Assembly (NCBI GenBank): GCA_022414725.1
Contig: CM039462.1
Location: forward strand, 74,895,803-74,959,802
DNA length: 64,000 nucleotides
Source: Microglena sp. YARC
Lineage: Eukaryota > Chlorophyta > Chlorophyceae > Chlamydomonadales > Chlamydomonadaceae
Direction of reading: 5' to 3'
Within the stretch, counting starts at the first letter, position 1; each line of letters starts with the position of its first letter. Both the position numbers and the translations under genes were made by a program. Of the stretch, positions 7,142-63,920 are shown piece after piece. Under the pieces are notes generated by a model that saw only the letters and a list, made by a program, of their open reading frames with translations, made no database searches and was not told the DNA's origin.

Positions 7142-7210
7142 AGCTATGCAGTTCTTGTCATCCCCATGTATGGTCCTGTCTGCTTCTCACTTCCGACGGT
7201 CGAGGACAAG
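7142..7210 (+). CDS. membrane-protein exon a
   Basis: The 69-nt exon follows a pyrimidine-rich stretch and CTATGCAG and ends at GAGGACAAG before the good donor GTAAGC. It encodes 23 residues, with the hydrophobic run YAVLVIPMYGPVCF and ending LPTVEDK, in phase 0 at both ends, matching the next exon. The segment could be the end of a membrane helix. Upstream exons are not identified. Donor-side decayed copies follow at about 7325 and 7440 (GTAAGC and nearby CTCCTGCACACRCTCAGCAC repeated). Confidence 0.5.
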
Positions 7211-7499
7211 GTAAGCACGGCTCTTGCGCACCCTCAGCACCACCCACCCACATCAAACCAACCACCACCAACCTGCACCACCACCCCCACCCCACCCCAG
7301 CTTCCCCCCAGCTTCCCCCCAGCCTTGGTAAGCAAGGCTCCTGCACACACTCAGCACATGGCACACTACTTCTTTCGCACCCTAAAACTGCATTATACAT
7401 TTTAACGTGTTTGAAAAAAGATCCCTCGCGGGGTGCCTCGCACAGCTCCTGCACACGCTCAGCACATGGCGCACTACTTCTTTAGCACCCTGAAATAGC

Positions 7500-8168
7500 C
7501 CTTCAACTGCATTATACCACGTTTCCTATACCCATCGGACCGCGTGTGTGGCAACTTATACCTCATCAGCACACCTACTTCATAAGAATCCCACCCCAAG
7601 CAGCATGCACACCCTCAAAGAACTTGAACTTGAACTTGAATTTGAACTTGAACTTGGTTACATAGCTCCAGCCAGCAATTTGGCTGCTCGCCGTCTTCGA
7701 CAGTAAAAAAACAAATTGTTACCAGGAAAACCCTAAATGAAGCCTGCCATGTTTCCTCTATCCATCAGACCGCGTGTGTGACTTATACCTCATCAGCACA
7801 CCTACTTCATAAGAATCCCACCCCAATCACCATGCACACCCTCAAAGAACTTGAACTTGAACTTAGTTACATAGCTCCAGCCAGCAATTTGGCTGCTCGC
7901 TGTCTTCGACAGTAAAAAAACAAATTATTACCAGGAAAACCCTAAATGTTTCCTCTACCCATCAGACCGCGTGTGTGACAACTTACACCTCATCAGCACA
8001 CCTGTTTCTGTACAGGGACCACCACAGAAAAACAAGAATCCAACCCCAATCACCATGCACACCCTCTAAGAACTTTAACTTCAGTCTTTGCTACAAAGCT
8101 TTAGCCAGCAATTTGGCTGCTCCCTGTCTTCAGCAGTAAACAAAAAGAGTACCAGGAAAACCTGGGAA
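7500..8168 (+). pseudogene. acceptor-side ghosts of exon b, with SINE-tail fragments
   Basis: Repeated units contain the acceptor and first codons of exon b (TTTCC, CCCAT, then GACCGCGTGTGTGRCAACTT) followed by CATCAGCACACCTACTTC. Copies start near 7518, 7748 and 7950. None reads through to the transmembrane coding part of the real exon, so they are truncated copies of the acceptor junction. SINE-like tail fragments (GAACTT repeats, then GGTTACATAGCTCCAGCCAGC) lie between them, showing that the duplicated unit carried an older insertion along. Confidence 0.65.
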
Positions 8169-8512
8169 AACCTTCAAAGAAGCCCGCCATGCCCTGCCAG
8201 GCGTTATCATTACAATATTATTATTAAATAAAGCCTGCCATGCCCTACCAGGCATTATCAATACAGTATCATAATTAGACAAAGCCCGCCATGCCCTACC
8301 CGGGGTTATCATTACAGTCTCATGATTAAAAGACGCCCACCATGTTTCCTTTGCCCTTAGGACTGCGGGTGCGCCAACTTCTACAAACTCATCAGAACAC
8401 CCACTTGATAACAATCCCACCCCAATCACCACACATACCCTCAAAGAACTTGAACTTGAATTTAGTTAAATAGCTTCAGCCAGCAATTTAGCTGCTCGCC
8501 GTCTTCAGCAGT
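7618..8512 (-). mobile_element. four 3' fragments of a SINE-like family
   Basis: Copies at about 7618-7710, 7847-7913, 8071-8140 and 8446-8512. On the minus strand each reads TTACTG, CGAAGACGGCGAGCAGCC, AAATTGCTGGCTGGAGC, TATGTAACC and then an (AAGTTC)n tail. A microsatellite at one fixed end is typical of SINE or LINE 3' ends. The core holds a short hairpin (AGCCA / TGGCT). Copies here were probably multiplied by local tandem duplication and not by independent insertion. A longer candidate with a tRNA-like head lies at 22165-22345. Confidence 0.6.
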
Positions 8513-9365
8513 AAAAAACAAATTATTACCATGCTCACTCTAAACAAGTCCTATGCAGCAAGCGACGCGGAAAAGTGGCGGAGTTTGTTGGCAGCGGAAC
8601 GAAAGGTGGCAACGATGGAGCTGACCGAAGCGAATTAGTTACGCGACCGTTGGCTGACGTGTCAGGCTTTAATTTTCATTTTTTCCCCGGTCGGACGGAC
8701 AAATGGGTAAACATGGGGGCTCCCGCCCCCTTGAAGAGGGGGCTCCGGTAAAAAGCCCGCCATGTTTCCTCTGCCCATAGAACCACGCCCCACCAGGCGT
8801 TATCATTACAGAATCCTTATTAAAAAAGGCCGCCATGTTTCCTCTGCCCATAGAACCACGCCCCACCAGGCGTTATCATTACAGAATCATTATTAAAAAA
8901 GGCCGCCATGTTTCCTCTGCCCAACCCCTGAACCACGCCCCACCAGGCGTTATCATTACAGAATCATTATTAAAAAAGGCCGCCATGTTTCCTCTGCCCA
9001 ACCCCTGAACCACGCCCCACCAGGCGTTATCATTACAGAATCATTATTAAAAAAGGCCGCCATGTTTCCTCTGCCCAACCCTGAACCACGCCCCACCAGG
9101 CGTTATCATTACAGAATCATTATTAAAAAAGGCCGCCATGTTTCCTCTGCCCAACCCCTGAACCACGCCCCACCAGGCGTTATCATTACAGAATCATTAT
9201 TAAAAAAGGCCGCCATGTTTCCTCTGCCCAACCCCTGAACCACGCCCCACCAGGCGTTATCATTAAAGGATCCTTATTAAAAAGGCCCGCCGTGTTTCCT
9301 CTGCCCATAGACCCCCCCCCCCTACCTGGCGTCATCATTACAGAATCATCATTCAAACACCCGCC
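8168..9365. repeat. 72-77 bp tandem array built on a splice-acceptor unit
   Basis: About ten units, regular from 8755 to 9330, each with CCGCCATGTTTCCTCTGCCC, then CACGCCCCACCAGGCGTTATCATTACAG, then AATCATTATTAAAAAAGG. The first part matches the pyrimidine-rich acceptor of exon b at 10066-10084. The CCCCACCAGGCGTTATCATTA part also occurs at about 47820-47845, next to a second tRNA-like sequence. The array thus appears to fuse an acceptor-side ghost with a short dispersed-element end and then amplify it. Early units (8180-8340) are more diverged. Confidence 0.85.
8563..8752 (+). repeat. dispersed repeat, GCGACG-palindrome family
   Basis: Starts with GCAGCAAGCGACGCGGAAAA, continues with GTGGCGGAGTTTGTTGGCAGC, contains CCGTTGGCTGACGTGTCAGGC, and ends with GGACAAATGGGTAAAC and a GGGGGCTCCCGCCCCC / GAGGGGGCTCC hairpin. 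Related copies lie at 13264, 23980, 25765 (inverted) and 58541. The shared ends and internal order indicate one dispersed family of about 190-240 bp. It carries no coding capacity. Confidence 0.7.
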
Positions 9366-10084
9366 ATGTTTCCTTGGCCCGTAGAACTGCACGTGTGACA
9401 ACTAATACATCATCAGCACACCTACTTTATATGAATCCCACCTCAATCACCATGCCCACCGTAAGAGAAGCCCACCATGTTTCCTTTGCCCATTGGACCG
9501 CGTGTATGACAACTTCTACCTGATCAGCACACCTACGTTATTAGAATCCCACCTCAATCACCATGCCCACCGTAAGAGAAGCCCGCCATGTTTCCTTTGC
9601 CCATTGGACCGCGTGTATGACAACTTCTACCTGATCAGCACACCTACGGTATTAGAATCCCACCTCAATCACCATGCACACCCTCAAAGAAGCCCACCAT
9701 GTTTCCTTTGCCCATAGGACCGCGTGTATGACAATTTCTACAAACTCATCAGCACACCCACTTGATAAGAATCCCACCCCAATCACCATACATACCCTAA
9801 AAAAACTTGAACTTGAACTTGAACCTGGTTACATAGCTTCAGCCAGCAATTTGGCTGCTCGCCGTCCTCAGCAGTAAAAAACACGATTACCAGGAAACAT
9901 TGGGAAAACCCTCAAAGAAGCCTGCCATGGGGTGTTAAAGTAAAAGAAGCCCGCCATGTTTCCTTTGCCCATAGGACCGCGTGTATGACAACTTCTACCT
10001 GATCAGCAAACTACGGTATTAGAATCCAACCTCAATCACCATGCACACCCTCAAAGAAGCCCACCATGTTTCCTTTGCCCATAG
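9365..10084 (+). pseudogene. acceptor-side ghost array of exon b
   Basis: About five units of roughly 110 bp, each with GCCCRCCATGTTTCCTTTG, CCCATAGGACCGCGTGTATG and ACAACTTCTACCTGATCAGC. Units at about 9475, 9585, 9695, 9945 and 10060 preserve the acceptor AG and the first ten or so codons of exon b, then switch to non-coding CACACCTACGGTATTAGAAT. The last unit runs on into the full exon. A SINE-tail fragment (9805-9877) sits inside one unit. Confidence 0.75.
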
Positions 10085-10230
10085 GACCGCGTGTATGACA
10101 ACTTCTACCTGAAGGTGCGCGACTACGTGCACGCACTCGTCTCCCTCTCCGCCTTTCTCGTCACCGTCATGTTCCTGAGCCCTGTGGTCAACTGCTTGTT
10201 CCCCAGTGGTGATAGAGATGGTAGTGCAAG
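10085..10230 (+). CDS. membrane-protein exon b
   Basis: The acceptor is TTTGCCCATAG and the donor is CAAG|GTGAGC. The 146-nt exon encodes DRVYDNFYLKVRDYVHALV and then a long hydrophobic stretch (SLSAFLVTVMFLSPVVNCLF), ending FPSGDRDGSA plus two bases. It is one likely transmembrane helix preceded by a charged amphipathic segment. Phase 0 start and phase 2 end match exons a and c. It is the only copy among the many upstream ghosts that stays open through the hydrophobic segment. Confidence 0.6.
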
Positions 10231-10295: not shown

Positions 10296-10545
10296 GGCTT
10301 CGCCCCCCTTTTCTCCTTTCTCATTACCGTCATGTTCTTGAGCTCTGTGGTCAACTGCTGGTTCCCCAGTGGTGATAAAGATGGTAGTGCAAGGTGAGCC
10401 GTGATGGGGTCCCTGCTAGGGGTAGCTTGGTTGTGGTGGTGGTGGCAGTGATGATGGTGGCTTCCCCCCCCCCCTCTCCGCCTTTCTCATCACCGTCATA
10501 TTGCTCAGACCTGTGGTAAACTGCTTAGCCTTTAGCAGTGACAAT
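10296..10545 (+). pseudogene. two donor-side ghosts of exon b
   Basis: Copies of the exon's second half and donor. One (about 10308-10397) repeats TCTCATTACCGTCATGTTC through GTGCAAGGTGAGCCGTGATG. A more decayed one (about 10480-10545) repeats TCTCATCACCGTCATATTGC, then diverges. Both are followed by GTGGTGGTGG simple sequence, as after the real donor. They lack the exon's first half, so they are duplications across the donor junction. Confidence 0.75.
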
Positions 10546-10709: not shown

Positions 10710-11429
10710 ATGACCAGGATTATAAAACCATCATCAACATCACACAGCATCAGCAGCAGCAGCATCAACATCATTACAATAGCATCGACAACAATTCATC
10801 ACCACCAACATCATCATCAGTTGCAGGAGCAGCAGCAGCGTATGGCCCTGAATCCCAAACCAACCTTATTGGTGTTCCTTTGCAGGTTTGCTTATTCTGT
10901 GGGCAGAACCATCCTCATGTCCATCATACCTACCAACCTACACCCCACACCACCAACACCATCATGCAAGTTTGCTGATTCCGTGGTCAGAACCATCCTC
11001 ATTCTCATGGCCATCATAGCAACCAACCAACCTACACCACCCCCACCACCCCACCACAGCTTCACCCCTAACCAACACCCCCACCACCAACACCACCACG
11101 CAGGTTTGCTGATTCCCTGGTCAGAACAATTCCCATCCTCATTGCCATTATACCAACCAATCACACCAGCCCCCACCCCACCCCACCCCACCCCACCCCA
11201 CCCTACCACACACACACACACACACCAACCCACCACAGCTTCACCCCTAACCAACACCCCCACTTCCAACACCACCACGCAGGTTTGCTGATTCCCTGGT
11301 CAGGACCATTCCTATCCTCATGGCTAGCATACCAACCAACCTATGCCACTCCCACCAACCCACCACAGCTTCAACCAGCTTCACCCCTCACCCCCCCCCA
11401 CCACCAACACCACCAACACCACCTTGCAG
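10710..11429 (+). pseudogene. acceptor-side ghosts of exon c
   Basis: Copies of GCAGGTTTGCTGATTCCSTG with RTCAGAACCATTCCCATCC occur at about 10884, 10969, 11100 and 11280 before the real exon at 11430. Each keeps a usable CAG acceptor and about 15 codons (FADSVVRTILILMAI-like) and then falls into CCACC/CAACACC repeats. These repeats supply the pyrimidine-rich tract of each acceptor. Confidence 0.75.
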
Positions 11430-11532
11430 GTTTGCTGATTCCGTGGTTAGAACCATTCCCATCCTCATGGCCCTCATGTGTGGCCTGGTCATGACTTGCC
11501 TTGGCCCGCCTCGTCAGATGCTGGGTCTATCG
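11430..11532 (+). CDS. membrane-protein exon c
   Basis: The 103-nt exon lies between ACCTTGCAG and the donor GTAAGTCA. It encodes (R)FADSVVRTIPILMALMCG, then LVMTCLGPPRQMLGLS, a hydrophobic segment followed by a short loop. Its first base completes the codon begun in exon b and it ends in phase 0. Compared with four upstream and three downstream ghosts, it alone has both an intact acceptor and an intact donor. Confidence 0.6.
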
Positions 11533-15506: not shown

Positions 15507-15761
15507 AATGTTCCGGAGACCTGCCTGCCAGTGGTACATGAGATTGACAACCCAATGTTTGAGAAGGATATGTACACTGGCTCCCGGGGGGGGGCTGCGC
15601 CCTCCATCCCTGAGGGGGAGGAGTACGAGATGGGGCCCCCACCCCAGATGGCCCCCGCGCCTGCTCCCAACCCCGCGCTCTCGCGTCGGCAGACAGCCGA
15701 GGTAGAGAGCGATGGAGGGGACGAGTTCCGGCGCTCTCCCAGGGATGATTTCCGTCAACAG
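15507..15761 (+). CDS. membrane-protein exon d
   Basis: The 255-nt, 85-codon, phase-0 exon lies between CTCCTTCAG and CAACAG|GTGGGT. It encodes NVPETCLPVVHEIDNPMFEK, then a Gly/Glu/Pro-rich linker (EEYEMGPPPQMAPAPAPNPA), then RRQTAEVESDGGDEFRRSP and RDDFRQQ. Together with the final exon it looks like a disordered, charged cytosolic tail. A poly-G run of nine at about 15587 is a possible sequencing-length uncertainty. The exon keeps its frame while all upstream and downstream copies break. Confidence 0.6.
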
Positions 15762-21830: not shown

Positions 21831-22065
21831 GGTTACATGGCTCCAGCCAGCAATTTGGCTGCTGCTCGTCTTAGGCAATAACATAAACAATCAAAATCAA
21901 AGTTTGGTAGTAAACAACACTTCCCCACTCTAAGTAGGTCTGAGTGCAATCACAAGGGTGGTGCGTACTTGAACTTGAATTTGCTTACTTGAAATTGGTT
22001 TCATACCTTGAATTTGCATGGGCTCCAGCCAGCAATTTGGCTGCTCGCCGTCTTAGGCAGTAACA
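21825..22065 (-). mobile_element. two SINE-like 3' fragments
   Basis: Copies at about 21825-21882 and 21968-22065 read CTTGGTTACATGGCTCCAGC, CAGCAATTTGGCTGCTCG and CGTCTTAGGCAGTAACAT, with GAACTT repeats on the plus-strand left side. They belong to the family at 7618-8512. The second has a long degenerate tail region (ACTTGAACTTGAATTTGC). Confidence 0.6.
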
Positions 22066-22345: not shown

Positions 22346-22359
22346 AAATTGTTAGGATG

Positions 22360-23975: not shown

Positions 23976-23979
23976 CTAT

Positions 23980-31445: not shown

Positions 31446-31826
31446 CCAACCATTGACATGAGGGGCTGTAACAAAAACAAAGCTGATGAACTGAACCCCC
31501 AAACAATCATTTTACCGATGGGCCCTGAGTTCGTACGACAGTGATCATTTAGGTATATGATTGATATGAACATCCTAAGTTACAAATGACACCTCCTCAC
31601 CCGTCACCCCCCCCAACCCTACTCCCACCCAAAGCCCTAAACCCAAACCCAAACCTAAACCTAAACCCAAACCCCTCACTCCCTCACCCAACCCCCACCC
31701 CTCGACCCCATCAGCCCTTACCCCACCCAACCCCCGCCCCACCCAAACCTCAACCCCTCACACCCTCAAACCCCCCACCCCACCCCACCCCACCACCCAC
31801 ACACACCTCCCCGCTTGCCTGTCCAG

Positions 31827-31915
31827 GAGTATAACATCCAAGTAACCAAGAAGGGCAAAGTTATTGTCCACCGCAGCACCCCGGTCCTTGTCGACCGTTG
31901 AGGGCAAAGGGCGCG
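31827..31915 (+). pseudogene. acceptor-side ghost of exon 4
   Basis: Preceded by the same CCCGCTTGCCTGTCCAG acceptor context as the real exon and identical to it for over 60 bases (GAGTATAACATCCAAGTAAC and onward). It then lacks bases at CCCGGTCCTTGTCGACCGTT and ends in a frame stop. The flanking C-rich repeat (31600-31810, 31960-32170) is duplicated with it, giving a unit of about 360 bp. Confidence 0.85.
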
Positions 31916-31985
31916 GCTGCTTAAAGTGATCATCCGGTCACAATCAACTTCCTCACCCTTTCACACCCTCATCCGCTCCCCCCCC

Positions 31986-32186: not shown

Positions 32187-32395
32187 GAGTATAACATCCA
32201 AGTAACCAAGAAGGGCAAAGTTATTGTTCACCGCAGCACCCCGGTCCCCTCGTCGACCGTTGAGGGCAAAGGGCGGCGTCTGATTGACATGAACGTGTTG
32301 TCTCACGATAGATCAAAGGACCTCCCTATTGTTGCCGACATCCCACATCCCTTCTTGAAGCGAATCGGCTTTCAGACTTCCGAGGGCAAGGTCAA
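32187..32395 (+). CDS. methyltransferase exon 4
   Basis: The acceptor is CTTGCCTGTCTAG and the donor is GTCAA|GTGAGT, a consensus donor. It reads EYNIQVTKKGKVIVHRSTP, VPSSTVEGKGRRLIDMNVL, SHDRSKDLPIVADIPHPFL KRIGFQTSEGKV plus AA. The HDR..K DLPI motif followed by a Leu-Gly-Phe-type segment is characteristic of the region just before the SAM-binding domain in this family. Ending in phase 2, it joins exon 5 to form Lys-Ala-Asp-Met. Confidence 0.85.
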
Positions 32396-32540
32396 GTGAG
32401 TCTGTAGTCGTTTAGGGAGGGGTGGGAGAGGGGGTGGGGGGGGGGAATGTAGGTCAGGATTGGGGGGGAATGGTGGTGGTGGGGGGGGCCCAAAGGTGGG
32501 GGAGGAGGGTAGGAGAGGGTTGGGTGGGGGAGGGGATATG

Positions 32541-32650
32541 ATCGTGTTGTCACAAGACAGATCAAAGGACCTCCCTATTGTTGCCGACATCCCACATCCC
32601 TTCTTGAAGCGAATCGGCTTTCAGACTTCCGAGGGCAAGGTCAAGTGAGA
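32541..32650 (+). pseudogene. donor-side ghost of exon 4
   Basis: Repeats the last ~105 bases of exon 4 (GATCGTGTTGTCACAAGACA, GATCAAAGGACCTCCCTATT through GGCAAGGTCAAGTGAGACTA) almost without change, including the donor. It is separated from the exon by G-rich sequence. The near identity suggests a recent duplication. Confidence 0.85.
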
Positions 32651-32989
32651 CTATATTTGTTGGCTTGGCGTAAGGTGGAGGTGGGGGTGTGTGGGGGGGA
32701 AGGGCATGGGTGGTGACTGTGTGGGTTTGGGTGTGGGTGGGTGGGTGGGTGGGTGTGAGTTGGTGAGTGTCTGTGTGGGTGGGTGGATGGGTGTCTTTGT
32801 GGTTGTGGGTGGGGGGTGAGTTCTGAGATAGAGACCAACACTCGAACCCTTCACAGAGCGGTTGACCTCATGCTGTAAACAATATGTCCCACATATTGTA
32901 AAAGACACGGACTAGTTAGCCAAAGAGGGATCAAGGGACTTGCTAAACGCAATATAACGATAGCGTAGAGATCACCACCACCACCACTA

Positions 32990-35430: not shown

Positions 35431-35766
35431 GGCTGACATGCGAGACAAGTTATCACAAGTGAACGACTTCCTAAAGCTCCTGGGTCACACAGGAGCACTC
35501 GAGCAATTAAGGGGGCCCAGCAATACATCCGCTACAGAAGCTTCTGGAACATCGGCATCAACTGCCGACTCCCCTAGCAGCAGTACAAGCACTGACAGCC
35601 TGGCATCCAGCAGTACTGCCCCAATCCGGATCCTGGACGCTGGGTGTGGGAGCAGCCACTTGACTCTGTGCACATACCACTACCTGAACAATGTGAAAAA
35701 TATGAAGACATGTATAATGGGTGTGGACAGCAACAAAGAACTTATGGCACGTAGCAACTCGTACTG
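35431..35766 (+). CDS. methyltransferase exon 5, SAM-binding core
   Basis: The acceptor is CCTGCACCCAG and the donor is TACTG|GTGAGC. After completing Lys it reads [19 protein letters not shown], a Ser/Thr/Ala-rich insert ([19 protein letters not shown] and onward), then [38 protein letters not shown] and [19 protein letters not shown] is motif I (SAM-binding glycine loop) and GVDSN carries the acidic residue that contacts the SAM ribose. The insert of about 35 residues before motif I is unusual. Phase 2 end. Confidence 0.9.
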
Positions 35767-35850: not shown

Positions 35851-35954
35851 CTTGTGCACATACCACCACATGAACAATGTGAAAAACATGAAGACCTGTA
35901 ATTGGGTGTGGACAGCAAAACAAAGATTCTTATGGAACGAAGCAACTCGTATTG
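35851..35954 (+). pseudogene. donor-side ghost of exon 5
   Basis: Repeats CTTGTGCACATACCACCACA, TGAACAATGTGAAAAACATG to GCAACTCGTATTGGTGAGTA. It has indels (TGTAATTGGG for TGTATAATGGG; GCAAAACAAAGA for GCAACAAAGA) that break the frame. The donor is intact. Confidence 0.85.
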
Positions 35955-36034
35955 GTGAGTACTGGTGTTGTGTGTATGTGTGTGTGTGTGTGTGTGTGTG
36001 GGGGGGGGGGGGATTTCTTGGGGGGACAACTTCA

Positions 36035-36590
36035 CTCCCCCTGCCACTCCAGATCACTATTGCATTGTCATCGACAGGCCATTGTTGGCCCAAGACAAGC
36101 CAGCACAGACCAGATATTGTGCTTTCTCTGCATGCGTGCAATGGCGCCACTAAATCCTGAACACCTGGACACCTGGACACCTGAACACCCAAGCACCTAA
36201 ACACCTAAGCACCTAAACACCTAAGCACCTACACATCTAAACATCTGAACACATGCAGTCGTGGGATGGGAATGTCAGAAGAGGAAGGCGTTTGTTTCTG
36301 CCATACGCCTCTCCCATTGTCAACTTCACTTCCCCAGCCACTCCAGATATCGTGCTTTCTCCGCATGCGTGCGACACCGCCACTGACTCCTTAACACCTG
36401 AACACCTGAACACCCAAGCACCTACACATCTAATCATCTGAACACATGCAGTCGTGGGATGGGAATGTCCGAAGAGGAGGCCATTTGATTCTGCCATACG
36501 CCTCTCCCATTGTCAACTTCACTTCCCCAGCCACTCCAGATATCGTGCTTTCTCCGCATGCGTGCGACACCGCCACTGACTCCTTAACAC
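36035..36590 (+). pseudogene. three acceptor-side ghosts of exon 6
   Basis: Copies at about 36040-36155 (most decayed), 36259-36390 and 36452-36583. The last two keep the ACATGCAG acceptor and read TCGTGGGATGGGAATGTCMG, AAGAGGA and CGTGCTTTCTCCGCATGCG, but an inserted segment (TTCTGCCATACGCCTCTCCC) and lost ALAL codons break them. Each is followed by (ACACCTAA)n-like repeats. The period is about 193 bp. Confidence 0.85.
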
Positions 36591-36612: not shown

Positions 36613-36760
36613 TCGTGAGATGGGATTGTCAGAAGAGGAAGCCCAGTTCTATGCTTCGCCTATCGTCAACTTCATTCCCGCGGCCACTCCAGATATCGTG
36701 CTCGCCCTGCATGCGTGCGACACCGCAACTGACGAGGCTCTTGCTCTTGGGGTCAAGCAG
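36613..36760 (+). CDS. methyltransferase exon 6
   Basis: The acceptor is AAACACTTGCAG; its first base completes Cys and it then reads REMGLSEEEAQFYASPIVN, FIPAATPDIVLALHACDTA and TDEALALGVKQ before GTGATT. The PDIVLALHACDTATD block is the diagnostic post-motif of the family, at the position of motif IV. Phase 0 end. It is the only one of four tandem copies with an unbroken frame through this motif. Confidence 0.9.
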
Positions 36761-37339: not shown

Positions 37340-37640
37340 TCTTCTCCCCCTCTTTTGTATGGCGCCTCAATCATCATGGCCGTTCCCTGCTCCATCAACC
37401 CCCCCTCCTACACCCTACCCGACCCCCACACCCACTCCCACACCCACTCACTCCACCCACCCCCACCCCCACCCACTCCACACACACACACACACTCCAC
37501 CCACCCCCCACCACACACACACACACACTCCCACTCCACACTTCCCCCCTTTTTGTATGGCGCCTCAATCATCAAGGCCGCTCCAGCCGCCACAAGAACC
37601 CCCATCCAAATGGCAAACCGCCGTCAAGGCACTCCTCCCC
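37340..37640 (+). pseudogene. two acceptor-side ghosts of exon 7
   Basis: Copies at 37350-37410 and 37548-37640 read CCTTTTGTATGGCGCCTCAA, TCATCATGGCCGTTCCCTGC and so on. In both, the real acceptor TTTTGCAGGG is changed to TTTTGTATGG, so the AG is gone. C-rich and CACTCCAC repeats and a run of about 35 C (37646-37681) lie between. Confidence 0.85.
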
Positions 37641-37814: not shown

Positions 37815-38082
37815 GGTGCCTCCATCATCATGGCCGTCCCCTGCTGCCACAAGAACCTGCACAAACAGATGCAGGGCAGCCCCGCCCCCGCCCCTTTTGG
37901 CCCCCTCATGCACCACGGTATCATGAAACAGAGGACGGTGGACCTCCTCACCGACACCTTCCGTGCCCAGATCCTTCGCATCCTGGGCTACAAGACGGAC
38001 GTGGTTGAGTTTGTGTCAAGCGAACACACACCGAGGAATCTGCTCATCCGGGCGGTGCGTGTGGCCCGCGAGGAGGGTGCAG
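37815..38082 (+). CDS. methyltransferase exon 7
   Basis: The acceptor is CCCCTTTTGCAG and the donor is GCAG|GTGTGT. It reads GASIIMAVPCCHKNLHKQM, QGSPAPAPFGPLMHHGIMK, QRTVDLLTDTFRAQILRIL, GYKTDVVEFVSSEHTPRNL and LIRAVRVAREEGA. VPCCHK is the conserved Cys-Cys-His motif and HGIMKQR with EFVSSEHTPRNLLIRAVR is the C-terminal signature of this family. Phase 1 end. Confidence 0.92.
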
Positions 38083-38126: not shown

Positions 38127-38167
<41 letters not shown>

Positions 38168-38168
38168 T

Positions 38169-38263
38169 ACAAGATGGACGTGGTTGAGTTTGTCTCAAGC
38201 GAACATACCCCAAGGAATCTGCTCATCCGGGCAGTGTGCGTGGCCCGCAAGGAGGGTGCAGGT
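38169..38263 (+). pseudogene. donor-side ghost of exon 7
   Basis: Repeats CTACAAGATGGACGTGGTTG, AGTTTGTCTCAAGCGAACAT through GAGGGTGCAGGTGCGTGTTG. It is nearly identical over 95 bases and in frame (KMDVVEFVSSEHTPRNLLI). The donor is changed from GTGTGT to GTGCGT. (CA)n lies on both sides. Confidence 0.88.
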
Positions 38264-38279
38264 GCGTGTTGTTGGTGAT

Positions 38280-38530
38280 CTTTGACTATCTATCCATCTG
38301 TCACACTCACACAAACACACATACACACACATACATGCACGCACATACACATGCACACACACAACTGCAAACACACATGCACTGCACACACACACACACA
38401 ACTGCGCACGCAAACACACAAACACACGCACACATACACACACACACATACAAACACACATACATAAATATACACACATACACATACACACACACACAAA
38501 ACTGCACACACACACATACACACACACAAC
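38280..38530. repeat. (CA)n-type intron repeat
   Basis: Degenerate ACACACATACACACAC with GCACTGCACAC. Frames across it on both strands are repeat translations. Confidence 0.9.
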
Positions 38531-38534
38531 TGCA

Positions 38535-38620
38535 GGTGTGGCAACGGAGGGCAGTGTGCAATCTGGGCGGGTTCAACAGCTTGTGTCAGGAAAACCACCT
38601 CCTGGTGTGAAAAGCAAAAA
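38535..38620 (+). pseudogene. acceptor-side ghost of exon 8
   Basis: CACACAACTGCAG, then GTGTGGCAACGGAGGGCAGT and GGGCGGGTTCAACAGCTTGT. It keeps acceptor and frame for 17 codons, then passes into AACCACCTCCTGGTGTGAAA (the end of a dispersed repeat also at 26065 and 54438) and (CAAAA)n at 38612-38680. Confidence 0.8.
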
Positions 38621-38782: not shown

Positions 38783-38946
38783 GTGTGACAACGGAGGGCA
38801 GTGTGCAAGCTGGGCGGGTTCAACAGCTTGTGGAGGAGTATGCCTCGTTGAAGCAGTTTTGGGGAGGGTTGACTCCACACTTGGAGAAGCTGCTGGCTGA
38901 GGAGCTGTCGCCCTTATTGGGGGATAGCCTAGATGGTTCTGATTGA
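38783..38946 (+). CDS. methyltransferase exon 8 with stop
   Basis: The acceptor is CACACACTGCAG. The exon completes Gly and reads VTTEGSVQAGRVQQLVEEY, ASLKQFWGGLTPHLEKLLA and EELSPLLGDSLDGSD before TGA at 38944. EEY..LK.FWG..P.LEKLL is a helical C-terminus common in this family. Confidence 0.85.
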
Positions 38947-39440
38947 TGGTGTTAACGAAAAACAATTTAAATTTAAAAATACAATAAAATCCTTATTGGG
39001 GGATAGCAGCCTAGATGGTTCTGATTGATGGTGTTAACAAATAACAAATTAAATTTAAAAATACAATAAAATCCTTATTGGGGGATAGCAGCCTAGATGG
39101 TTCTGATTGATGGTGTTAACAAATAACAATTTAAATTTAAAAATAAAATAAAATCCTTATTGGGGGATAGGAGCCTAGATGGTTCTGATTGATGGTGTTA
39201 ACAAATAACAATTTACATCTAAAAATAAAATAAAATCCTTATTGGGGGATAGCAGCCTAGATGGTTCTGATTGATGGTGTTAACAAATAACAATTTAAAT
39301 TTAAAAATAAAATAAAATCCTTATTGGGGGATAGCAGCCTAGATGGTTCTGATTGATGGTGTTAACAAATAACAATTTAAATTTTAAAGTACAATAAAAT
39401 CCTTATTGGGGGCTAGCAGCCTAGATGGTTCTGATTGATT
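38916..39440 (+). repeat. 82-bp array repeating the stop codon and 3' UTR
   Basis: Six to seven units of 82 bp: CCTTATTGGGGGATAGCAGC, CTAGATGGTTCTGATTGATG, GTGTTAACAAATAACAATTT, AAATTTAAAAATAAAATAAA. Each unit repeats the last twelve codons and TGA of the methyltransferase plus its 3' UTR. Units begin near 38908, 38991, 39073, 39155, 39237, 39319 and 39401. AATAAAA motifs recur in every unit, so several equivalent polyadenylation signals may exist. Confidence 0.92.
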
Positions 39441-39835
39441 GCGAGAAAAACAAATCGGCCAAAGAAGCATACCTGATGATATAATGATGTTCGACTGTCC
39501 GCACACTTGTTCATGTGTTGGTATGCTATCTGCCGCCCTTCATGGGGGCTAGCAGCCTAGATGGTTCTGATTGATTGCGTGAAAAACGAATCGGCCAAAG
39601 AAGCATACCTGATGATAGAGTGACGTTTGTCTGTCTACACACTTGTTCATGTGTGTGTAGGCTAGCTGTTGCCCTTATAACCTTATAGGGGGGCAGTCAA
39701 CTTGGTTCTGATTGATGTTGATAAATAACAAATCAGCCAAAGAAGCATGTCTGGTGTAGGCATACTGTTTATCTGTCAACTCTCTTGCTCATGCATAGGT
39801 TTGGGGTCCAATTCGTCAGTGCTTTTTCTTTTTAA
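39401..39835. repeat. ~140-bp units extending the 3' array
   Basis: Three larger units starting with GGGGGCTAGCAGCCTAGATG, GTTCTGATTGATTGCG and continuing AATCGGCCAAAGAAGCATAC, CTGATGATA, CACACTTGTTCATGTGTKGG. They begin near 39408, 39543 and 39690 (the last more diverged). They share the stop-codon segment with the 82-bp array, so the duplicating unit changed length. Confidence 0.8.
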
Positions 39836-48321: not shown

Positions 48322-49545
48322 TTACGGTGCCACTAAGCAGTCCAGGGCTTCCTGTCTTGCTCTTCTACAAGTAGAAAGATAGTCGGCTAGGTTGCTCCAA
48401 AAAGACTTAGTGCCATTTCCATTCATAAAGGTTCTGAATGTGGAATCGCAGAATTCCACATTCCATACGGTTAAGTCGGTATCTTCATGGACATGCCTAT
48501 AAATATCTGTAAACAGATTCTGGTAGCGGAGGCGAATATCATTATAAAAAGGGCACTCAAACATATGCATTTCATCCTCAGTTTTTTGGAACACACACAT
48601 TTGACAGTGTCTCATTGAGCGAGGGATGTGTGCTCTATCCACCACCCTCATTCTTTCTGTGTTCAGCCAATGGGAACCCATTCTAAACTGTGCTATAGAA
48701 CGAATCTGATCCTGCTTATGTAAGGCGGATGTAAAGGGAATCAAGCCATTCTCATCATTGCTGTTGGCTGCGAACCATTTTTGGTATCGGAGGCGTTTAA
48801 AGCCAACCCTTCTCTCATCAGGGATGTCTCTAACTGCATTGGTGTCACTTGGGTACTTAAACCTCCATGACTCAAAAACTTCAGACATAATACCTTCGAC
48901 ATCGACAGCCTCCAAAATGTTGATGTTTTTACTGGATCCTAGCTTGTGGAGAGCACAACGCAAGTCATGAACCCAGCCAGTGTTGGAGTCAAAAGATTCC
49001 TCAAGAGCCATTCTAATGAGATCCTCAGGTTCTTTATGTATGGTCTTGTTCCAGAAGCGCAAAGCTTGTTTAAGCCAAGCAAAACACAACGGGGTTCTAC
49101 CCAGCTCTTCCATGATAATATTAGATGTAGTAGATTGGCAAACACCCAACATTTGTTTAAGTATACCTCTATGCCATTTCTCACAAGCATGGTCATTTGA
49201 GATAAGTGTGTTGTTCAGAATAGAAGGAGCCCACACCTCACAGCCAAAATTCAGGATAGGTTGTACAAGAGAATCAAACAGGTGGGTGAGAATATCAATA
49301 TTGTATATCTCCATAGTATGGCATCGCCTACGAAGCATGTGGTGTGCCTTTTGGGCCTTAGTGAGCATCCTAGAAAAAGCAGCTTTTGCACGATTGCTTG
49401 AGTCACCATCCACAAAGAGGGATCCCAAGTAGATAAAAGATAACTTTGTAGAAAGTTGTGCTCCATCATAGACAAATTTGTAATCAGGACCCATGCGGGC
49501 CTCATCACAGAATTGTTTGTTGAAAACGACAATCTCAGTTTTTCT
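48322..49545 (-). CDS. LINE C-terminal region after a frameshift
   Basis: The frame opens just beyond the A-run at 49540-49548, where one extra A separates it from the RT frame. It reads EIVVFNKQFCDEARMGPDY, then IYLGSLFVDGDSSNRAKAA, AHHMLRRRCHTMEIYNIDI and onward, and contains CQMCVFQKTEDEMHMFECP, a CX2C..HX4C zinc-finger-like motif common at LINE C-termini. It ends at TAA 48322. A single homopolymer indel therefore breaks an otherwise intact polyprotein: a real mutation or a sequencing error. Confidence 0.85.
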   Translation of the reverse strand, partial: RKTEIVVFNKQFCDEARMGPDYKFVYDGAQLSTKLSFIYLGSLFVDGDSSNRAKAAFSRMLTKAQKAHHMLRRRCHTMEIYNIDILTHLFDSLVQPILNFGCEVWAPSILNNTLISNDHACEKWHRGILKQMLGVCQSTTSNIIMEELGRTPLCFAWLKQALRFWNKTIHKEPEDLIRMALEESFDSNTGWVHDLRCALHKLGSSKNINILEAVDVEGIMSEVFESWRFKYPSDTNAVRDIPDERRVGFKRLRYQKWFAANSNDENGLIPFTSALHKQDQIRSIAQFRMGSHWLNTERMRVVDRAHIPRSMRHCQMCVFQKTEDEMHMFECPFYNDIRLRYQNLFTDIYRHVHEDTDLTVWNVEFCDSTFRTFMNGNGTKSFWSNLADYLSTCRRARQEALDCLVAP

Positions 49546-50340
49546 TTATATTCACAGCCATCTTAGTAGCCTCGCAGAAATCTCTCAGGCAGTCAAGCAT
49601 CGCTTGCATATCTGCCGGGGATTCTGCCATTATAGCTAGGTCATCAGCATAAAGTAACAGTTGCAGAATCTTTCCCCTAAGCCCAGCCCCTACATTTGGG
49701 AGCTTGGATTGTAGGAACGATTCAATTCTATCAATGAACAGACCGAATAGGAGTGGGGATAGGGGGTCTCCTTGTTTAACTCCTACAAGGGATGGAAAGG
49801 AGGATCCAATGTCCCCATGTAGGCGAACTTGGAAAACAACATGATTATACATGGACTTCAGAATACTGAGATAGGGGTCCTTGACTCCTAGCCTTGCTAA
49901 GCAATCCCATAGCAAGTCTCTGTTGACCCAATCATAAGCCTTCTTGAAATCAACAAAAGCCACAAAGAGTGGTTTTTTCTTTTCTCTATATTTATCTACA
50001 ATATGGTTAAGAATGAATGATGCATCTGCAGTACCCCTACCACTTCTAAATCCATATTGGCCAGCGGCTCTGAGGTTGAATTCTTCTGACCAATCATCTA
50101 GTCTACGTAGCATGCAAAGGGAGAAGATCTTTCCTATGGAGTTGCTCACCGCAAGACCTCGATAGTTGTCCTTGTCATACACACTGCCTTTGGATTTGGG
50201 TACGGGTACCAAGGCAGCTGCAGCCCATTGGCTAGGGTAAGAAGTCTTCCAGATGAGATTAAACAGGTTAGTCATAGCTTGTACAAATCGGGAGTTGGCC
50301 TCATGGGAAGCAAATCTGTATATTGAAAGAAAGAATTTAA
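49535..50340 (-). CDS. LINE reverse transcriptase domain
   Basis: From about 50340 (open in frame above the first ATG at 50275): TNLFNLIWKTSYPSQWAAA, LVPVPKSKGSVYDKDNYRG, then motif A FVAFVDFKKAYDWVNRDLL, motif B GVKQGDPLSPLLFGLFIDR, and the catalytic YADDLAIMAE. It ends NIKKN in an A-run. All core catalytic acidic residues are present (D in motif A, YADD). The usual KAPGPDG-type segment at the domain start is not seen, so the N-terminus is lost or frameshifted near 50300. Clade not assigned with certainty. Confidence 0.9.
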
Positions 50341-50392
50341 CGCCTGGAGGAACGTGTTGTTGAGGACCCTCCCATATTGTCTTTCGATAGGG

Positions 50393-50757
50393 AGTGTTAA
50401 GGCCGCCTTTTTAGAGCTCTATGCCTCTCTCCTTGTTTGTTTGGTGATTTTCCTGTGCCTTTTGTCCTTCACGTCTTCTTGTAGAATCTCGCTTTTTAGG
50501 CCTCGGCAACTCTCAGCCCTTCTTCTATATACACTTAATTCGCTAGTTTCTCTATACCTTGGCAGTTCGCATTGCTTGTTGTCAAGCCTTTTATTTGCTC
50601 TTTCGTACGCTTTTTTGGAGGTCACCTCCTGGACCAGGTTCTGAGGGGTATTTTGCTCAACCCCCTCTGTTATAAAACTGTCCAGCTGCCTCGGCGCTGT
50701 TCAGTCTCGGCATTGATTTTTGCTGAGTATGTAACTATATCCTCTCTCTCTCCCATA
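50393..50757. repeat. direct duplication, copy 1
   Basis: From GGAGTGTTAAGGCCGCCTTT to TGTAACTATATCCTCTCTC. It matches 51110-51470 at over 90 percent by eye. The 717-bp spacing includes unique sequence. A 68-codon minus-strand frame (MTSKKAYERANKRLDNKQC and onward) is kept in both copies, with only a few substitutions, so it may be part of a LINE 5' region or a short conserved protein. Confidence 0.8.
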
Positions 50758-51109
50758 TTGTCTATACTAGCTTGGATTTGTTCTTGTCCCTTTGTAGCAA
50801 CCGTCTTGTTTCTGGCGGTGTAGGTGATGGGGGGTAGCTTATGTGTTCACTTCTCGAGTCTCCGTTTGAATCTTGACCTGTTTGGCTGCTCTCCTGTGCC
50901 CTCTCTCCGTCCTTAAGCTTGATGGTTTCTTGACAGATAGGCTTTGGACTCTCTTAGCTTTTCCCCGCTGGTCTTGGTCTTTCGCTTTTCCTCACGCTTT
51001 TTATCGTGTTCGTAGTTATGCGTAGGTTGTTAAGTGTCCTTTCTTAGCTGTGCTTTTCCTTGTGGCGTTTTGGCTGACGGCTTGGACTTGTGTTTGCCTT
51101 TAAATATGG

Positions 51110-51470
51110 AGTGTTAAGGCCGGCTTTTTAGAGCTCTATGCCTCTCTCCTTGTTTGTTTGGTGATTTCCCTATGCCTTTTGTCCTTCACGTCTTCTTGTA
51201 GAATCTCGCTTTTTAGGCCTCGGCAACTCTTAGCCCTTCTACAATATACTCTTAACTCGCTAGTTTCTCTATACCTTGGTAGTTCGCATTGCTTGTTGTC
51301 AAGCCTTTTATTTGCTCTTTCGTACGCTTTTTTTGAGGTCACCTCCTGGACCAGGTTCTGAGGGGTATGTTGCCCAAACCCTCACTGTTATAAAACTGTC
51401 CAGCTGCCTCGGCGCTGTTCAGTCTCGGCATTGATTTTTGCTGAGTATGTAACTATATCCTCTCTCCATA
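51110..51470. repeat. direct duplication, copy 2
   Basis: Second copy, with differences such as GCCGGC for GCCGCC and CTACAATATACTC for CTTCTATATACAC. The minus-strand 68-codon frame is intact (51136-51342). The sequence between copies (50758-51109) shows nothing further. Confidence 0.8.
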
Positions 51471-51889
51471 TTGTCCAGTCTGGAGGGCGGTATGGTCCAG
51501 ACACCGTTGGTAAAGCTTACGCCAACGGGAGTTCGATCCCCACTGCCGGAAGACAGTGGGTGTCTCGAGTCCGTTCTTTCGAGGGCGGTGGTGTTTCCAC
51601 CGCCAGGACAAGTGGCCATTGCAATCTTTCTTTTCCCATACGCCTCAGCTGGGGAAAGTCACCACTACACAATATTGAAAAAGGCGAGCAGCCTTGAATG
51701 CTGGCGCCATTGCAACCAAGTTTAGATTCAAATTTGGAAAAGGTGCACGGAAATAGATGTATAATCGCTTCTCCCATGTTATCACATTCTGTGCATAGGA
51801 GTGTGGTGTGGCAGTGTTGAAACTAACCACGTTTATTCTGCCAGCAGACTGTGAGCAGACTGAACCGGTACCATGTAAGTAAGTTGGTA
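51471..51889. other. no gene recognised
   Basis: Contains TACGCCAACGGGAGTTCGAT, CCCCACTGCCGG, a box-B-like GAGTTCGATCCC without a matching box A at the right distance. Nothing else supported. Confidence 0.4.
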
Positions 51890-51898
51890 GTTCAACCG

Positions 51899-52041
51899 GG
51901 TAGGGGGAAGTTAGCCCGGGGTTAGCCAGCTCGGGAGTTGGGTTACATCCCTACCCCCCCACCCCACCCACACACACCCACACCCACACACGCACACTCC
52001 ACACACACACACGCCCAACCCCGGGCTAACTTCCCCCTTCC
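51899..52041. mobile_element. Mutator-like MITE with 9-bp target duplication
   Basis: The 143-bp element has 25-bp terminal inverted repeats (GGTAGGGGGAAGTTAGCCCG.. and, inverted, GGAAGGGGGAAGTTAGCCCG..) with one mismatch. It is flanked by a perfect 9-bp direct repeat GTTCAACCG (51890-51898, 52042-52050). The interior is CACACCC simple sequence. A 9-bp duplication with long GC-rich ends fits the Mutator (MULE) superfamily. Confidence 0.85.
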
Positions 52042-52084
52042 GTTCAACCGTGCTTGTTTGCTATGAAGCCCTTCCTAATATTGA

Positions 52085-52135
52085 GGTTAAGTATATTTAG
52101 CCTATTTGTCTACGCCTTAACTGGCTGGACTTAAT
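52085..52135 (-). repeat. fragment of the CAGTCCAGG-CCAAATAGG family
   Basis: GTATATTTAGCCTATTTGTC, TACGCCTTAACTGGCTGGAC. A diverged copy of the motif at 19071 and 39857. Confidence 0.45.
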
Positions 52136-52139
52136 AATA

Positions 52140-52930
52140 CACACACGTAACCGTTCCAGACCTTCTTGCTCCTCATCCCGTGAAAGGTACGTGTATTTAA
52201 AGTAGGGACAGAGTTGGCTAGGCTAAATGGCTAATCGTTAGGATTAGCATTCGGATTTTCGCCTTAAAGGGTGATCCTCCGAGCACTCAAGGATTTCGTC
52301 AATGTGATCGTCGGAGTCACTCATACATAACTCACTGATGGTGCTAACCCCAGTGACTGACTCTTCTCTCGTGTTAAAATTGGAGGAACACAGAAGATTA
52401 TCATTTGTTTAGGTTGTGAAAGGAATTTTACCCCAGGAGGTCGGTCTCCCGACACAAACCAGGGACACCGAGGATTCAGTTCGATTGACGATGCTACTCC
52501 TATTTATGGGGTGGGTTGTGAAAAAGTAGGCAAGCAAGCGGGGGTGGGGGGGTGGGGGGGGCAAAAGCAATCCACAAAACCCATGCCCACTTCCCCCAAA
52601 GTTGGCCGAGTTTGCCATCTACCCACCAGGCTCCGGAACCCACTTGGAGGTCATTATCTCCTCCCTCATTAATAATTAGGGGGTCTAAGTAGGGTGCACA
52701 TTGTATACCGGTAGCTTGTAAATGCCTATCTACTGGTGCTGTTCCTATGACCATGCACCATATGTGGAGCAAGACAAAACAATCAGACAATACAATCAGC
52801 GTTAGTGGGCACACGGACGAAGCGCCATAATCACCATCAATGTTACATGAGAGGTAGGGCCTGGGGTTAGTGCCCATTCATCAGTTGATTGACCCGCCAC
52901 CACTCCATGGCCGGCGGCTAAGGGTTCTGT
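52140..52930. other. no gene recognised
   Basis: Holds a small hairpin GCTAATCGTTAGGATTAGC (52229-52247) and a G-rich stretch at 52540-52562. Minus-strand frames here have no domain or splice support. Confidence 0.4.
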
Positions 52931-52954
52931 TCATAGTGTGACGCAGCCTAGAGG

Positions 52955-53045
52955 CCTGAATGCGTCCCAGGACGCAACCTACCAAATTGAATGCGTCCCA
53001 GGACGCAACATACCGAATTAGGTTGCGTCCCAGGACGCAACCCCT
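52955..53045. repeat. three GCGTCC-CAGGACGC palindromes
   Basis: TGCGTCCCAGGACGCAAC occurs three times at about 52960, 52990 and 53026, each an inverted repeat GCGTCC..GGACGC with a CA centre. Spacers are CTACCAAATTGAA and ATACCGAATTAGG. Related to the GACGC motifs at 22550-23125. Confidence 0.7.
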
Positions 53046-54388: not shown

Positions 54389-54518
54389 TTACCAGCATAT
54401 CATCAAAGCAGAGGGCAACAATGGGGGTGCCACCTAGCAGAGCCATTCAAACTGAATCCTCGTTGTCGCTCGTTTGTGTAGGGAGACCCACCTCATGGGG
54501 TGAAATACCTTTCACAAC
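54389..54518. repeat. exon ghost joined to a dispersed repeat
   Basis: 54389-54441 (CCAGCATATCATCAAAGCAG, AGGGCAACAATGGGGGTGCC) is a copy of the minus-strand exon at 54733-54790. It is cut at CAGAGC and continues directly as the dispersed repeat CATTCAAACTGAATCCTCGT through GGGGTGAAATACCTTTCAC. The junction records insertion of, or recombination with, that repeat. Confidence 0.65.
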
Positions 54519-54732: not shown

Positions 54733-54916
54733 CAGCATATCATCAAAGCAAAGGGCAACAATGGGGGTGCCACCCAGCAGAGCATTCATCTCCTCTTCCT
54801 CTTTGCTTTCTGAGCCACTGTTTGTAAACACGACCTTAGCTGGAGCCACTGGTAGGATGTTGGTTTTCAGATCACATGCGTACTCAAGCAATCCAGGCAC
54901 AGTTGGCGTGGACCCA
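54733..54916 (-). CDS. unrecognised minus-strand exon with many ghosts
   Basis: Acceptor (minus) TTTCGCAG at 54917-54924 and donor CTG|GTAAGT at 54731-54732. One frame is open throughout the 184 nt: GSTPTVPGLLEYACDLKTN, ILPVAPAKVVFTNSGSESK, EEEEMNALLGGTPIVALCF DDML. The composition is that of a folded protein. I do not recognise the family with confidence. It is probably one exon of a gene whose other exons lie at higher coordinates. Confidence 0.5.
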
Positions 54917-62940: not shown

Positions 62941-62941
62941 C

Positions 62942-63018
62942 CTGTTGTTCACACACACGCGAGCGGCCCAGGCACAAGATGTTGGAGCATTCCACACTAG
63001 GCCAGCAAGCACCACCAG
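62942..63018 (-). CDS. unrecognised Cys-containing minus-strand exon
   Basis: Minus acceptor ACCTTTCAG, donor CAACAG|GTGAGG. The frame GGACWPSVECSNILCLGRS, RVCEQQ is open for 25 codons with four Cys. It is the copy with both splice sites intact. Phase 0 end. It may belong with the exon at 59357, but the intervening phase (needs two bases) does not match directly, so another exon would be required. Confidence 0.4.
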
Positions 63019-63039
63019 CTGAAAGGTTAATGGGGCAAA

Positions 63040-63275
63040 GGGTGCTATTGTTGATGCTGATGTTGAAGTTGGTATTGATGTTGATGTTGGTGTTGGTATT
63101 GATGTTGATATTGGCGTGGCGTTGATATTGATATTGATGTTGATATTGACGTGATGTCGAGGTTGATATTGGTATTGATGCTGATATTGACATGGTGTTG
63201 AAATTGATGTTGGTAGTGATGTTGATGTTGAGGTTGAGGCTGATATTGACGTGGTGTTGAGGTTGATATTAATGT
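63040..63275. repeat. TTGATRTTGATGTTGG repeat
   Basis: Degenerate 6-bp-based repeat (GATGTTGATATTGACGTGGT). It includes two ~60-bp higher-order copies. A run of about 28 C follows at 63279-63306. Confidence 0.9.
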
Positions 63276-63319
63276 TAAGCCCCCCCCCCCCCCCCCCCCC
63301 CCCCCCATAACTCCCCACC

Positions 63320-63920
63320 CTTCGAGCCCACTACATCATCAAAGACACCAGCAGGGCTATCATTGCCTCTTGCAAAGTATTATCTGTCAAGGACAAATCC
63401 AAACAGCTCCATCCTCCCCCTCCCCCTCCCCCCCCCTTTGCACCATCACCCCCACACACACACACAACTCTACCCCCACCACCACCACCACCACACCACA
63501 ACAGCTCTACCCACAACCACAACTGAGCCCCCCCCCACCACCACCCACCACAACACACACACACACACCACCACAACAATTCTACGCACCACCACAACCG
63601 AGCATTACCCCGCCATATCAATCCACCCACTTCATCCCCAACCCCATCTCTATGGCTCTACCCCACCCCACCAAGCCACCCACCTTATTAAAAACGCCAG
63701 CCAGACTACCTATGTTTAGTGCAAGGTAGATTCCCCCAAGGGCGCAACCAAACAGCTTCACCCCCACCCTTCCCCAACCCCACCCTCAGCCCCAACCCCA
63801 TCTCTATAGCTCTACCCCACACCACCAAGCCACCCAACTCACCGAAGGCGCCAATAGGGCTACCATCGTATCTTGTAAGGTAGAATCTACCAAGGTTGTT
63901 AACAAACAGGTCCCCCCTCT
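63320..63920 (+). pseudogene. three diverged copies of a plus-strand exon-like unit
   Basis: At 63335-63408, 63686-63753 and 63840-63918. They read YIIKDTSRAIIASCKVLSV KDKSKQ, HLIKNASQTTYV*CKVDSP KGATKQ and QLTEGANRATIVSCKVEST KVVNKQ. The pattern ..(R/Q)(A/T)xxxxCKV.S.K...KQ is conserved at protein level although DNA identity is modest. The second has an in-frame stop. Downstream C-rich/CACACA repeats are repeated too. The third ends CAG|GTCCCC at the array edge. They may be ghosts of an exon beyond the right end of the window. Confidence 0.55.

What the first reader, a model, noticed from the sequence alone, without database searches (positions are those of the whole stretch)
7142..63918. 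Introns built from tandem ghost copies of neighbouring exon edges
Around at least ten separate exons in several genes, the intron next to an acceptor holds tandem decayed copies of that acceptor plus the exon's first 30-120 bases, and the intron next to a donor holds copies of the exon's last part plus that donor. Copies never include a whole exon. Polarity is consistent: acceptor-type upstream, donor-type downstream. Such a rule points to an active mechanism of intron growth by duplication across exon-intron junctions, with simple repeats expanding between copies. It would also create a store of cryptic splice sites. I know of no described system with this regularity across a locus.
Basis: partly seen in the sequence, partly recalled or inferred. 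Interest (0 to 1): 0.9.

Follow-up and report, generated by a model that had tools for sequence, protein, structure and literature searches.

The report
Intron growth by local segment duplication
In a large green-alga genome, introns have swollen through repeated local copying of short DNA segments that often straddle exon edges, leaving decayed copies of exon ends in the introns; the striking side rule can follow from geometry and selection without a mechanism that seeks splice sites.

Summary
All ten window exons modelled carry ghosts. In CCT/Cpn60 genes, not chosen for ghosts, 10 of 26 acceptors and 9 of 26 donors do. Over 51 exons: 60 head copies upstream, 35 tail copies downstream, 16 reaching neither edge, none whole or on the wrong side; cross-gene control 1 of 213 edges. 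A mechanism aimed at splice junctions is not needed for the side rule: a local duplication straddling an edge can only leave its ghost on the intron side, and randomly placed units of these sizes would hold a whole exon in only 6% of exon-touching cases. Stop codons show the same in two of ten genes. Ghost splice sites decay neutrally. Whether edges are also hit more often than chance is open: 20 of 38 families cross an edge, against 11.7-15.6 expected on collapsed introns and 17.1-20.6 if ghosts of conserved exons are twice as detectable. Best explanation: repair-type local duplication, neutrally retained, accounting for 36-47% of sampled intron length.

The parts
32187..32395 (+). Gene B (Methyltransf_32) exon with ghosts on both sides
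   Evidence: GT-AG, in-frame CDS; matches P0121 from the Met of P0121 onward
31672..31922 (+). Acceptor-type ghost (intron tail + first ~99 bp of exon 32187)
   Evidence: aligns to 32022-32285; 92.9% over exon bases 1-99
32535..32701 (+). Donor-type ghost (last 110 bp of exon 32187-32395 + donor)
   Evidence: copy of 32286-32447; 95.5%
35431..35766 (+). Gene B exon (SAM-binding part of methyltransferase)
35853..36012 (+). Donor-type ghost of exon 35431-35766
   Evidence: copy of 35667-35822; 87.4%
36196..36580 (+). Two acceptor-type ghosts of exon 36613
   Evidence: 193-bp period; exon bases 1-121 at about 78%
36613..36760 (+). Gene B exon
37344..37600 (+). Two acceptor-type ghosts of exon 37815
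   Evidence: exon bases 1-31 and 1-43 at 90% and 84%
37815..38082 (+). Gene B exon
38167..38349 (+). Donor-type ghost (last 95 bp of exon 37815-38082 + donor + intron start); the two aligned copies overlap by about 5 bp
   Evidence: copy of 37988-38171, shift 179; also found by whole-genome DNA search
38505..38585 (+). Acceptor-type ghost of exon 38783
   Evidence: copy of 38751-38832; 96% over exon bases 1-50
38783..38946 (+). Gene B last exon with TGA stop
38991..39756 (+). Eight copies of the last ~35 bp of the CDS (stop included), with 3'UTR sequence, downstream of the real stop
   Evidence: about 82-bp period for the first six
7142..7210 (+). Gene A exon; acceptor-type ghost at about 6901-7043
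   Evidence: shift 159
10085..10230 (+). Gene A exon; five acceptor-type ghosts within about 7960-10058, donor-type ghosts at about 10300-10399 and (partial) 10472-10525
11430..11532 (+). Gene A exon; four acceptor-type ghosts within about 10880-11330, three donor-type ghosts at about 12625, 12746, 12865
15507..15761 (+). Gene A exon; four donor-type ghosts starting at about 15911, 16126, 16323, 16471; upstream hits reach only exon bases 31-80, not the acceptor edge
54733..54916 (-). Gene C exon with 15 acceptor-type ghosts within 2.5 kb upstream (array to about 56989) and one donor-type ghost at about 54392-54450

Best explanation
This alga's genome undergoes frequent local direct duplication of segments, mostly 55-219 bp, by a break-repair or template-switch process that does not depend on the sequence copied; the best candidate is staggered-break (patch-type) fill-in and end joining, with spaced copies from nearby templated synthesis. 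Duplications fall roughly at random in genes. One that breaks the mRNA (break inside an exon, or an extra exon) is removed by selection. One whose break lies in an intron and whose copied segment reaches over the nearest exon edge leaves the real exon, its splice sites and the reading frame whole, so it is nearly neutral and persists as a ghost. Introns were shorter when this began, so a large share of duplications reached an edge; repetition and simple-repeat expansion made them kilobases long. Shown: local, direct, edge-straddling copies; the side rule; neutral decay of ghost splice sites; the same at two stop codons. Inferred: the repair pathway, random placement, neutrality in splicing, exon-definition choice of the real exon, shorter ancestral introns.
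For: Direct pairs far outnumber inverted ones in the window (270 to 15) and among exon-ghost hits (111 to 1). Copies are local to their gene: 1 of 213 cross-gene control edges. The shortest shift is 55-219 bp in 132 of 148 arrays (counted; shifts under 40 were not looked for). Edge-crossing 20 of 38 CCT families against 17.1-20.6 expected if introns are collapsed and ghosts of constrained exons are twice as detectable. Whole-exon copies would be only 6% by chance. Stop-codon edges show it in gene B (8 copies) and cctG. Ghost AG intact in 42 of 56 (42.5 expected), ghost GT in 26 of 38 (28.4 expected). Duplication arrays also occur in 9 of 10 arbitrary 6-kb stretches. A process of this kind is known: small tandem duplications by fill-in of overhangs and end joining (PMC8355091, passages read).
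Against: Without the detection correction, crossing exceeds random placement: 20 seen, 15.6 expected (P = 0.07) or 11.7 (P = 0.003) by two ways of collapsing introns, 6.9 on present introns (P < 0.0001); with the five window introns, 28 of 46 against 19.6 or 14.7 (P = 0.004 and < 0.0001; 25.6 or 21.2 with twofold weight), though those genes were chosen because of the finding. The twofold weight is assumed, not measured. Arrays are twice as dense in CCT genes as in the ten arbitrary stretches (0.77 against 0.37 per kb), which a uniform process would not give unless transposon turnover dilutes the rest. Among 34 young two-copy pairs 29 have a spacer of 11-165 bp between copies, and in 15 of those 29 the spacer resembles neither flank by my cut of z < 2.5, so simple abutting tandem duplication is not the whole story. 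Six of ten last exons show no stop-codon ghost. No raw reads, RNA or population data were available.
Confidence: 0.68

Rival explanations
1. A junction-biased mechanism: duplication is started preferentially at exon-intron or other coding edges, for example by transcription- or splicing-linked R-loops or nicks.
For: Crossing exceeds expectation on present introns (20 vs 6.9) and, without detection correction, on collapsed introns (11.7-15.6); arrays denser in CCT genes than in arbitrary stretches; on the acceptor side nearer ghosts tend to be more similar at 6 of 7 edges with three or more ghosts, one of them only barely, as if the edge were hit repeatedly.
Against: With a twofold detection advantage the expectation is 17.1-20.6; 18 of 38 families cross no edge; two stop-codon edges behave the same; on the donor side 1 of 4 edges shows the nearness trend.
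Confidence: 0.22
2. Ghosts are functional: alternative or decoy splice sites maintained by selection.
For: 42 of 56 ghost acceptors and 26 of 38 ghost donors still carry AG/GT.
Against: That is what neutral decay predicts (42.5 and 28.4); the protein model P0121 uses none of gene B's ghosts.
Confidence: 0.05
3. Assembly artefact: collapsed or stitched repeats.
For: The region is rich in simple repeats; no raw reads could be seen.
Against: Most copies are diverged (88 of 111 at 80-95% identity), the side rule holds at separate loci on four large contigs, C1, C2, C3 and C5, and gene B's exons remain whole and in frame.
Confidence: 0.03

Closest known systems
Small tandem duplications from staggered breaks (patch-mediated repair in rice, Vaughn & Bennetzen 2014: content recalled, seen only as a reference-list entry; CST/Pol alpha-primase fill-in, PMC8355091, passages read)
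   Same: Local, direct duplication of short segments without need for homology
   Different: Here units are mostly 55-219 bp, young copies often keep a spacer, and the process makes up 36-47% of sampled CCT intron length; repair dependence untested
[quoted passage not shown] PMC4974935 and PMC3443670, passages read)
   Same: Tandem duplication involving exon and splice-site sequence; the potato case duplicates an upstream intron-exon structure
   Different: There a new intron is born; here the exon-intron structure is unchanged and existing introns lengthen
Introners (PMC9860276, seen only in a search listing)
   Same: Mass change of intron content in a lineage
   Different: Introners are dispersed copies of an element; ghosts here derive from the neighbouring exon
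Tandem exon duplication / mutually exclusive exons (recalled)
   Same: Local duplication next to an exon
   Different: No whole exon among 111 hits

Membership tests
Small local tandem duplication by break repair | Direct orientation, local | tested here: met
   270 direct vs 15 inverted pairs in the window; 111 vs 1 exon hits; control 1 of 213
Small local tandem duplication by break repair | Copies abut, with little or no spacer | tested here: inconclusive
   Of 34 young two-copy pairs, 3 overlap, 2 are 1-3 bp apart, 29 are 11-165 bp apart; of those 29, in 14 the spacer resembles a flank (hidden tandem), in 15 not, by my cut of z < 2.5
Small local tandem duplication by break repair | Dependence on end-joining / fill-in enzymes | not testable with these tools
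   needs mutants
[quoted passage not shown]
   Gene B's exon structure is intact and ghosts lie inside existing introns; whether some introns here were themselves born this way was not tested
Introners | Similar elements dispersed among unrelated genes | tested here: not met
   Exon sequence found in flanks of other genes at 1 of 213 edges
Whole-exon tandem duplication | Copy with both splice sites | tested here: not met
   0 of 111 hits; one kinesin pair may be nearly whole

The most novel reading that the evidence does not exclude
An active process, linked to transcription or splicing, starts local duplications preferentially at coding edges (exon-intron junctions and stop codons), so that intron length in this lineage is driven by the exons themselves.
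Probability: 0.2. Interest if true: 0.85.

Novelty: new variant of a known kind. Interest (0 to 1): 0.55.

Why it matters
It shows an engine of intron growth that is neither transposon insertion nor classical intron gain: local duplication, often carrying exon edges with it, accounting for 36-47% of intron length in 26 sampled CCT introns. It supplies a natural assay of splicing: dozens of duplicated splice sites beside the real ones whose decay rate can be measured. It also warns gene-finders and domain searches, which pick up ghost exons as extra matches, as the Pfam searches here did. My ten paper searches listed no description of such a genome-wide pattern; they cover open-access PMC only, and several listings were cut at 20 papers.

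Tried and rejected
Tried: nucleosome-like bimodality of unit length (peaks near 95 and 175 bp); a Silverman test did not reject one mode (P = 0.11). A gradient of ghost age with distance: negative at 6 of 7 acceptor edges (one at rho -0.09) and 1 of 4 donor edges, so no clean rule. Selection on ghost splice sites: none seen. More families for the side test (dynein PF12781, PF00133, PF00063): not completed. Naming the species: not possible; the nearest named algal proteins are from Gonium, Volvox, Haematococcus and Chlamydomonas, and the EukProt exact match bears no species name. Vaughn & Bennetzen 2014 is not held.

First placement test mended: searches counted a family as edge-crossing when its outer limits spanned the edge, which wrongly took in one cctA family, and collapsed introns by those outer limits, which over-collapses. 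One search repeats it with a strict rule and a second way of collapsing.

Rows left out before counts: one search used 52 of the 64 CCT/Cpn60 matches (12 lay outside the 11 regions fetched). junctions were accepted only at score 7 or more (26); three lower-scoring ones and those without a candidate were dropped, so cctF and cctK contribute no exact edges, and ghosts seen at cctK and at one cctI exon are not in the counts. One search used 112 of the 128 kinesin matches (14 long single-frame hits and the last two rows were left out); of 15 pairs found, 3 were read as consecutive or composite exons, 2 as ghost-ghost pairs, 1 as ambiguous. Gene C was modelled for one exon only; further exon-like repeats at 57-63.9 kb were read by eye and not modelled. 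The Silverman test used 138 of the 148 array shifts (10 above 300 bp left out). Last exons were taken from the last Pfam match to the next in-frame stop and may be wrong for cctE and cctH. One search tested 29 of the 34 pairs. The cut of z < 2.5, the unit list and the detection weights were my choices.
Full report
What was checked. The window is G000:C1:74895803-74959802 of a 568 Mb assembly in 2,390 contigs. Bases 1-6902 are a 17-bp satellite. The nearest named algal proteins to the window's methyltransferase gene are from Gonium, Volvox, Haematococcus and Chlamydomonas, so I take this to be a chlamydomonadalean alga; the species is not known to me.

Gene models. Gene B has five exons (32187-32395, 35431-35766, 36613-36760, 37815-38082, 38783-38946) that join through GT-AG into one open frame ending in TGA; more exons upstream are likely but were not modelled. 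It belongs to Methyltransf_32, PF13679. EukProt protein P0121 is identical to it over all 340 residues of P0121. Real exons and decayed copies of gene B are therefore distinguished by evidence outside the ghost pattern; whether P0121 rests on RNA or on gene prediction is not stated. Gene A (four exons modelled) and gene C (one exon, minus strand) were defined from splice signals and frame only.

The observation. Self-comparison of the window beyond the satellite gave 270 direct and 15 inverted pairs. All ten modelled exons have ghosts: acceptor-type upstream at 8 of 10 acceptors, donor-type downstream at 7 of 9 donors. The pattern is not confined to the window. A Pfam search of the whole genome for CCT/Cpn60 gave 64 matches; 11 gene regions were fetched, and 9 gave exact splice edges. 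There, without any choice by ghost content, 10 of 26 acceptors and 9 of 26 donors carry ghosts; three of the nine genes (cctG, cctI, cctJ) have none at the edges counted. Over all 51 exons there are 60 head copies upstream, 35 tail copies downstream, 16 copies that reach neither edge, no whole exon, none on the wrong side, and one inverted hit. Exons compared with flanks of other genes hit at 1 of 213 edges. The kinesin search, read only as a table, gave 9 unambiguous exon-ghost pairs, all on the predicted side; one more pair spans nearly the whole exon match and may be an exception.

Why the rule is less informative than it looks. If a segment holding the end of an intron and the start of an exon is duplicated locally, the rest of the exon can be continuous with only one copy, the downstream one. 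The ghost must then lie upstream; the mirror holds for donors. A break placed inside the exon destroys the message and is lost. The side rule is thus a product of locality and selection. Whole-exon copies are rare by size alone: observed unit lengths dropped at random on exons of the observed lengths give 83% edge-crossing, 6% whole-exon and 11% inside-exon events. From these figures, finding no whole-exon copy at 34 ghost-bearing edges has a chance of about 0.09 (my arithmetic). Duplications inside exons were not searched for.

Random or targeted? In 26 CCT introns there are 38 duplication families, of which 20 cross an edge by a strict rule (an earlier looser count gave 21). Random placement predicts 6.9 on present introns, and 11.7 or 15.6 after collapsing each family to one unit by bases covered or by outer limits (P = 0.003 and 0.07). 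If ghosts of constrained exons are twice as detectable, as one expects when only one of the two copies decays, the figures are 17.1 and 20.6 (P = 0.20 and 0.66). So random placement suffices if introns were shorter when hit and ghosts are easier to see; otherwise edges are favoured. I think the former more likely, but the test does not settle it. With the five window introns added, 28 of 46 cross against 14.7-19.6 unweighted and 21.2-25.6 at twofold weight, but those genes were chosen because of the finding. Stop codons, which carry no splice signal, show the same structure: eight copies of the last 35 bp of gene B's coding sequence, and one at cctG; cctI has an 18-bp match, cctE has matches near but not at the assumed stop, and the other six of ten last exons show none.

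Neutrality. Of ghosts whose alignment crosses the junction, 42 of 56 acceptors (18 edges) keep AG, 42.5 expected from each ghost's own identity, and 26 of 38 donors (15 edges) keep GT, 28.4 expected. There is no sign of purging or of maintenance. Exon-definition splicing, in which the closest compatible pair of sites wins, would explain why the real exon is chosen; this is inference.

Mechanism. The shortest shift is 55-219 bp in 132 of 148 arrays. Among 34 young two-copy pairs, three overlap, two are 1-3 bp apart and 29 are separated by 11-165 bp; in 15 of those 29 the spacer resembles neither flank. This fits a mixture of abutting duplications, as made by fill-in of staggered breaks before end joining (PMC8355091, passages read), and spaced copies made by templated synthesis near a break. 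The pathway is inferred. Duplications also occur in 9 of 10 arbitrary 6-kb stretches, but at half the density of CCT genes (0.37 against 0.77 arrays per kb); transposon turnover or a genic bias could each explain that.

Scale. Collapsing the recognisable families cuts 31,451 bp of CCT intron to 20,072 by bases covered or 16,773 by outer limits: 36-47% of intron length in that sample. Older copies that have decayed beyond recognition are not counted; sequence caught between copies inflates the second figure.

Known or new. Tandem duplication as a source of new introns is established (PMC4974935 and PMC3443670, passages read), and a duplication of an intron-exon structure is described in potato. 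Mass accumulation of junction-straddling ghosts as a major way in which introns lengthen was not listed by my searches, which cover open-access PMC only and whose longer listings were cut at 20. I therefore call it a new variant of a known kind: known mutation type, unusual dominance and instructive geometry.

Noticed in passing
window 1-6902: 17-bp satellite (ACCTCAAGGTCCTAGAC)n, about 406 copies, almost free of CpG (observed/expected 0.008 in the first 4 kb), ending just before gene A.
   Followed up: no
window 48322-50410 (-): Reverse transcriptase reading frame (PF00078), looking like a non-LTR element; the 120 of 192 relatives listed bear no informative names.
   Followed up: no
window 40429-41449 and 46309-47365: A 1.06-kb direct repeat at 95.6% identity, 4.9 kb apart, with 212-bp sub-repeats; perhaps a transposon pair.
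   Followed up: no
window 22000-28000 and 40000-53000: These stretches hold few local duplication arrays compared with the gene-bearing parts.
   Followed up: partly
L033-L056 and window: Young two-copy duplications often have a spacer of 11-165 bp between copies (29 of 34; 15 of 29 unlike either flank), not expected of simple tandem duplication; origin of the spacers unknown.
   Followed up: partly
cctA exon in L033, cctI exon in L043, gene A exon 15507-15761: Copies of exon middles that reach neither edge, including one 1.1 kb downstream of its exon; perhaps ghosts whose edges have decayed.
   Followed up: no
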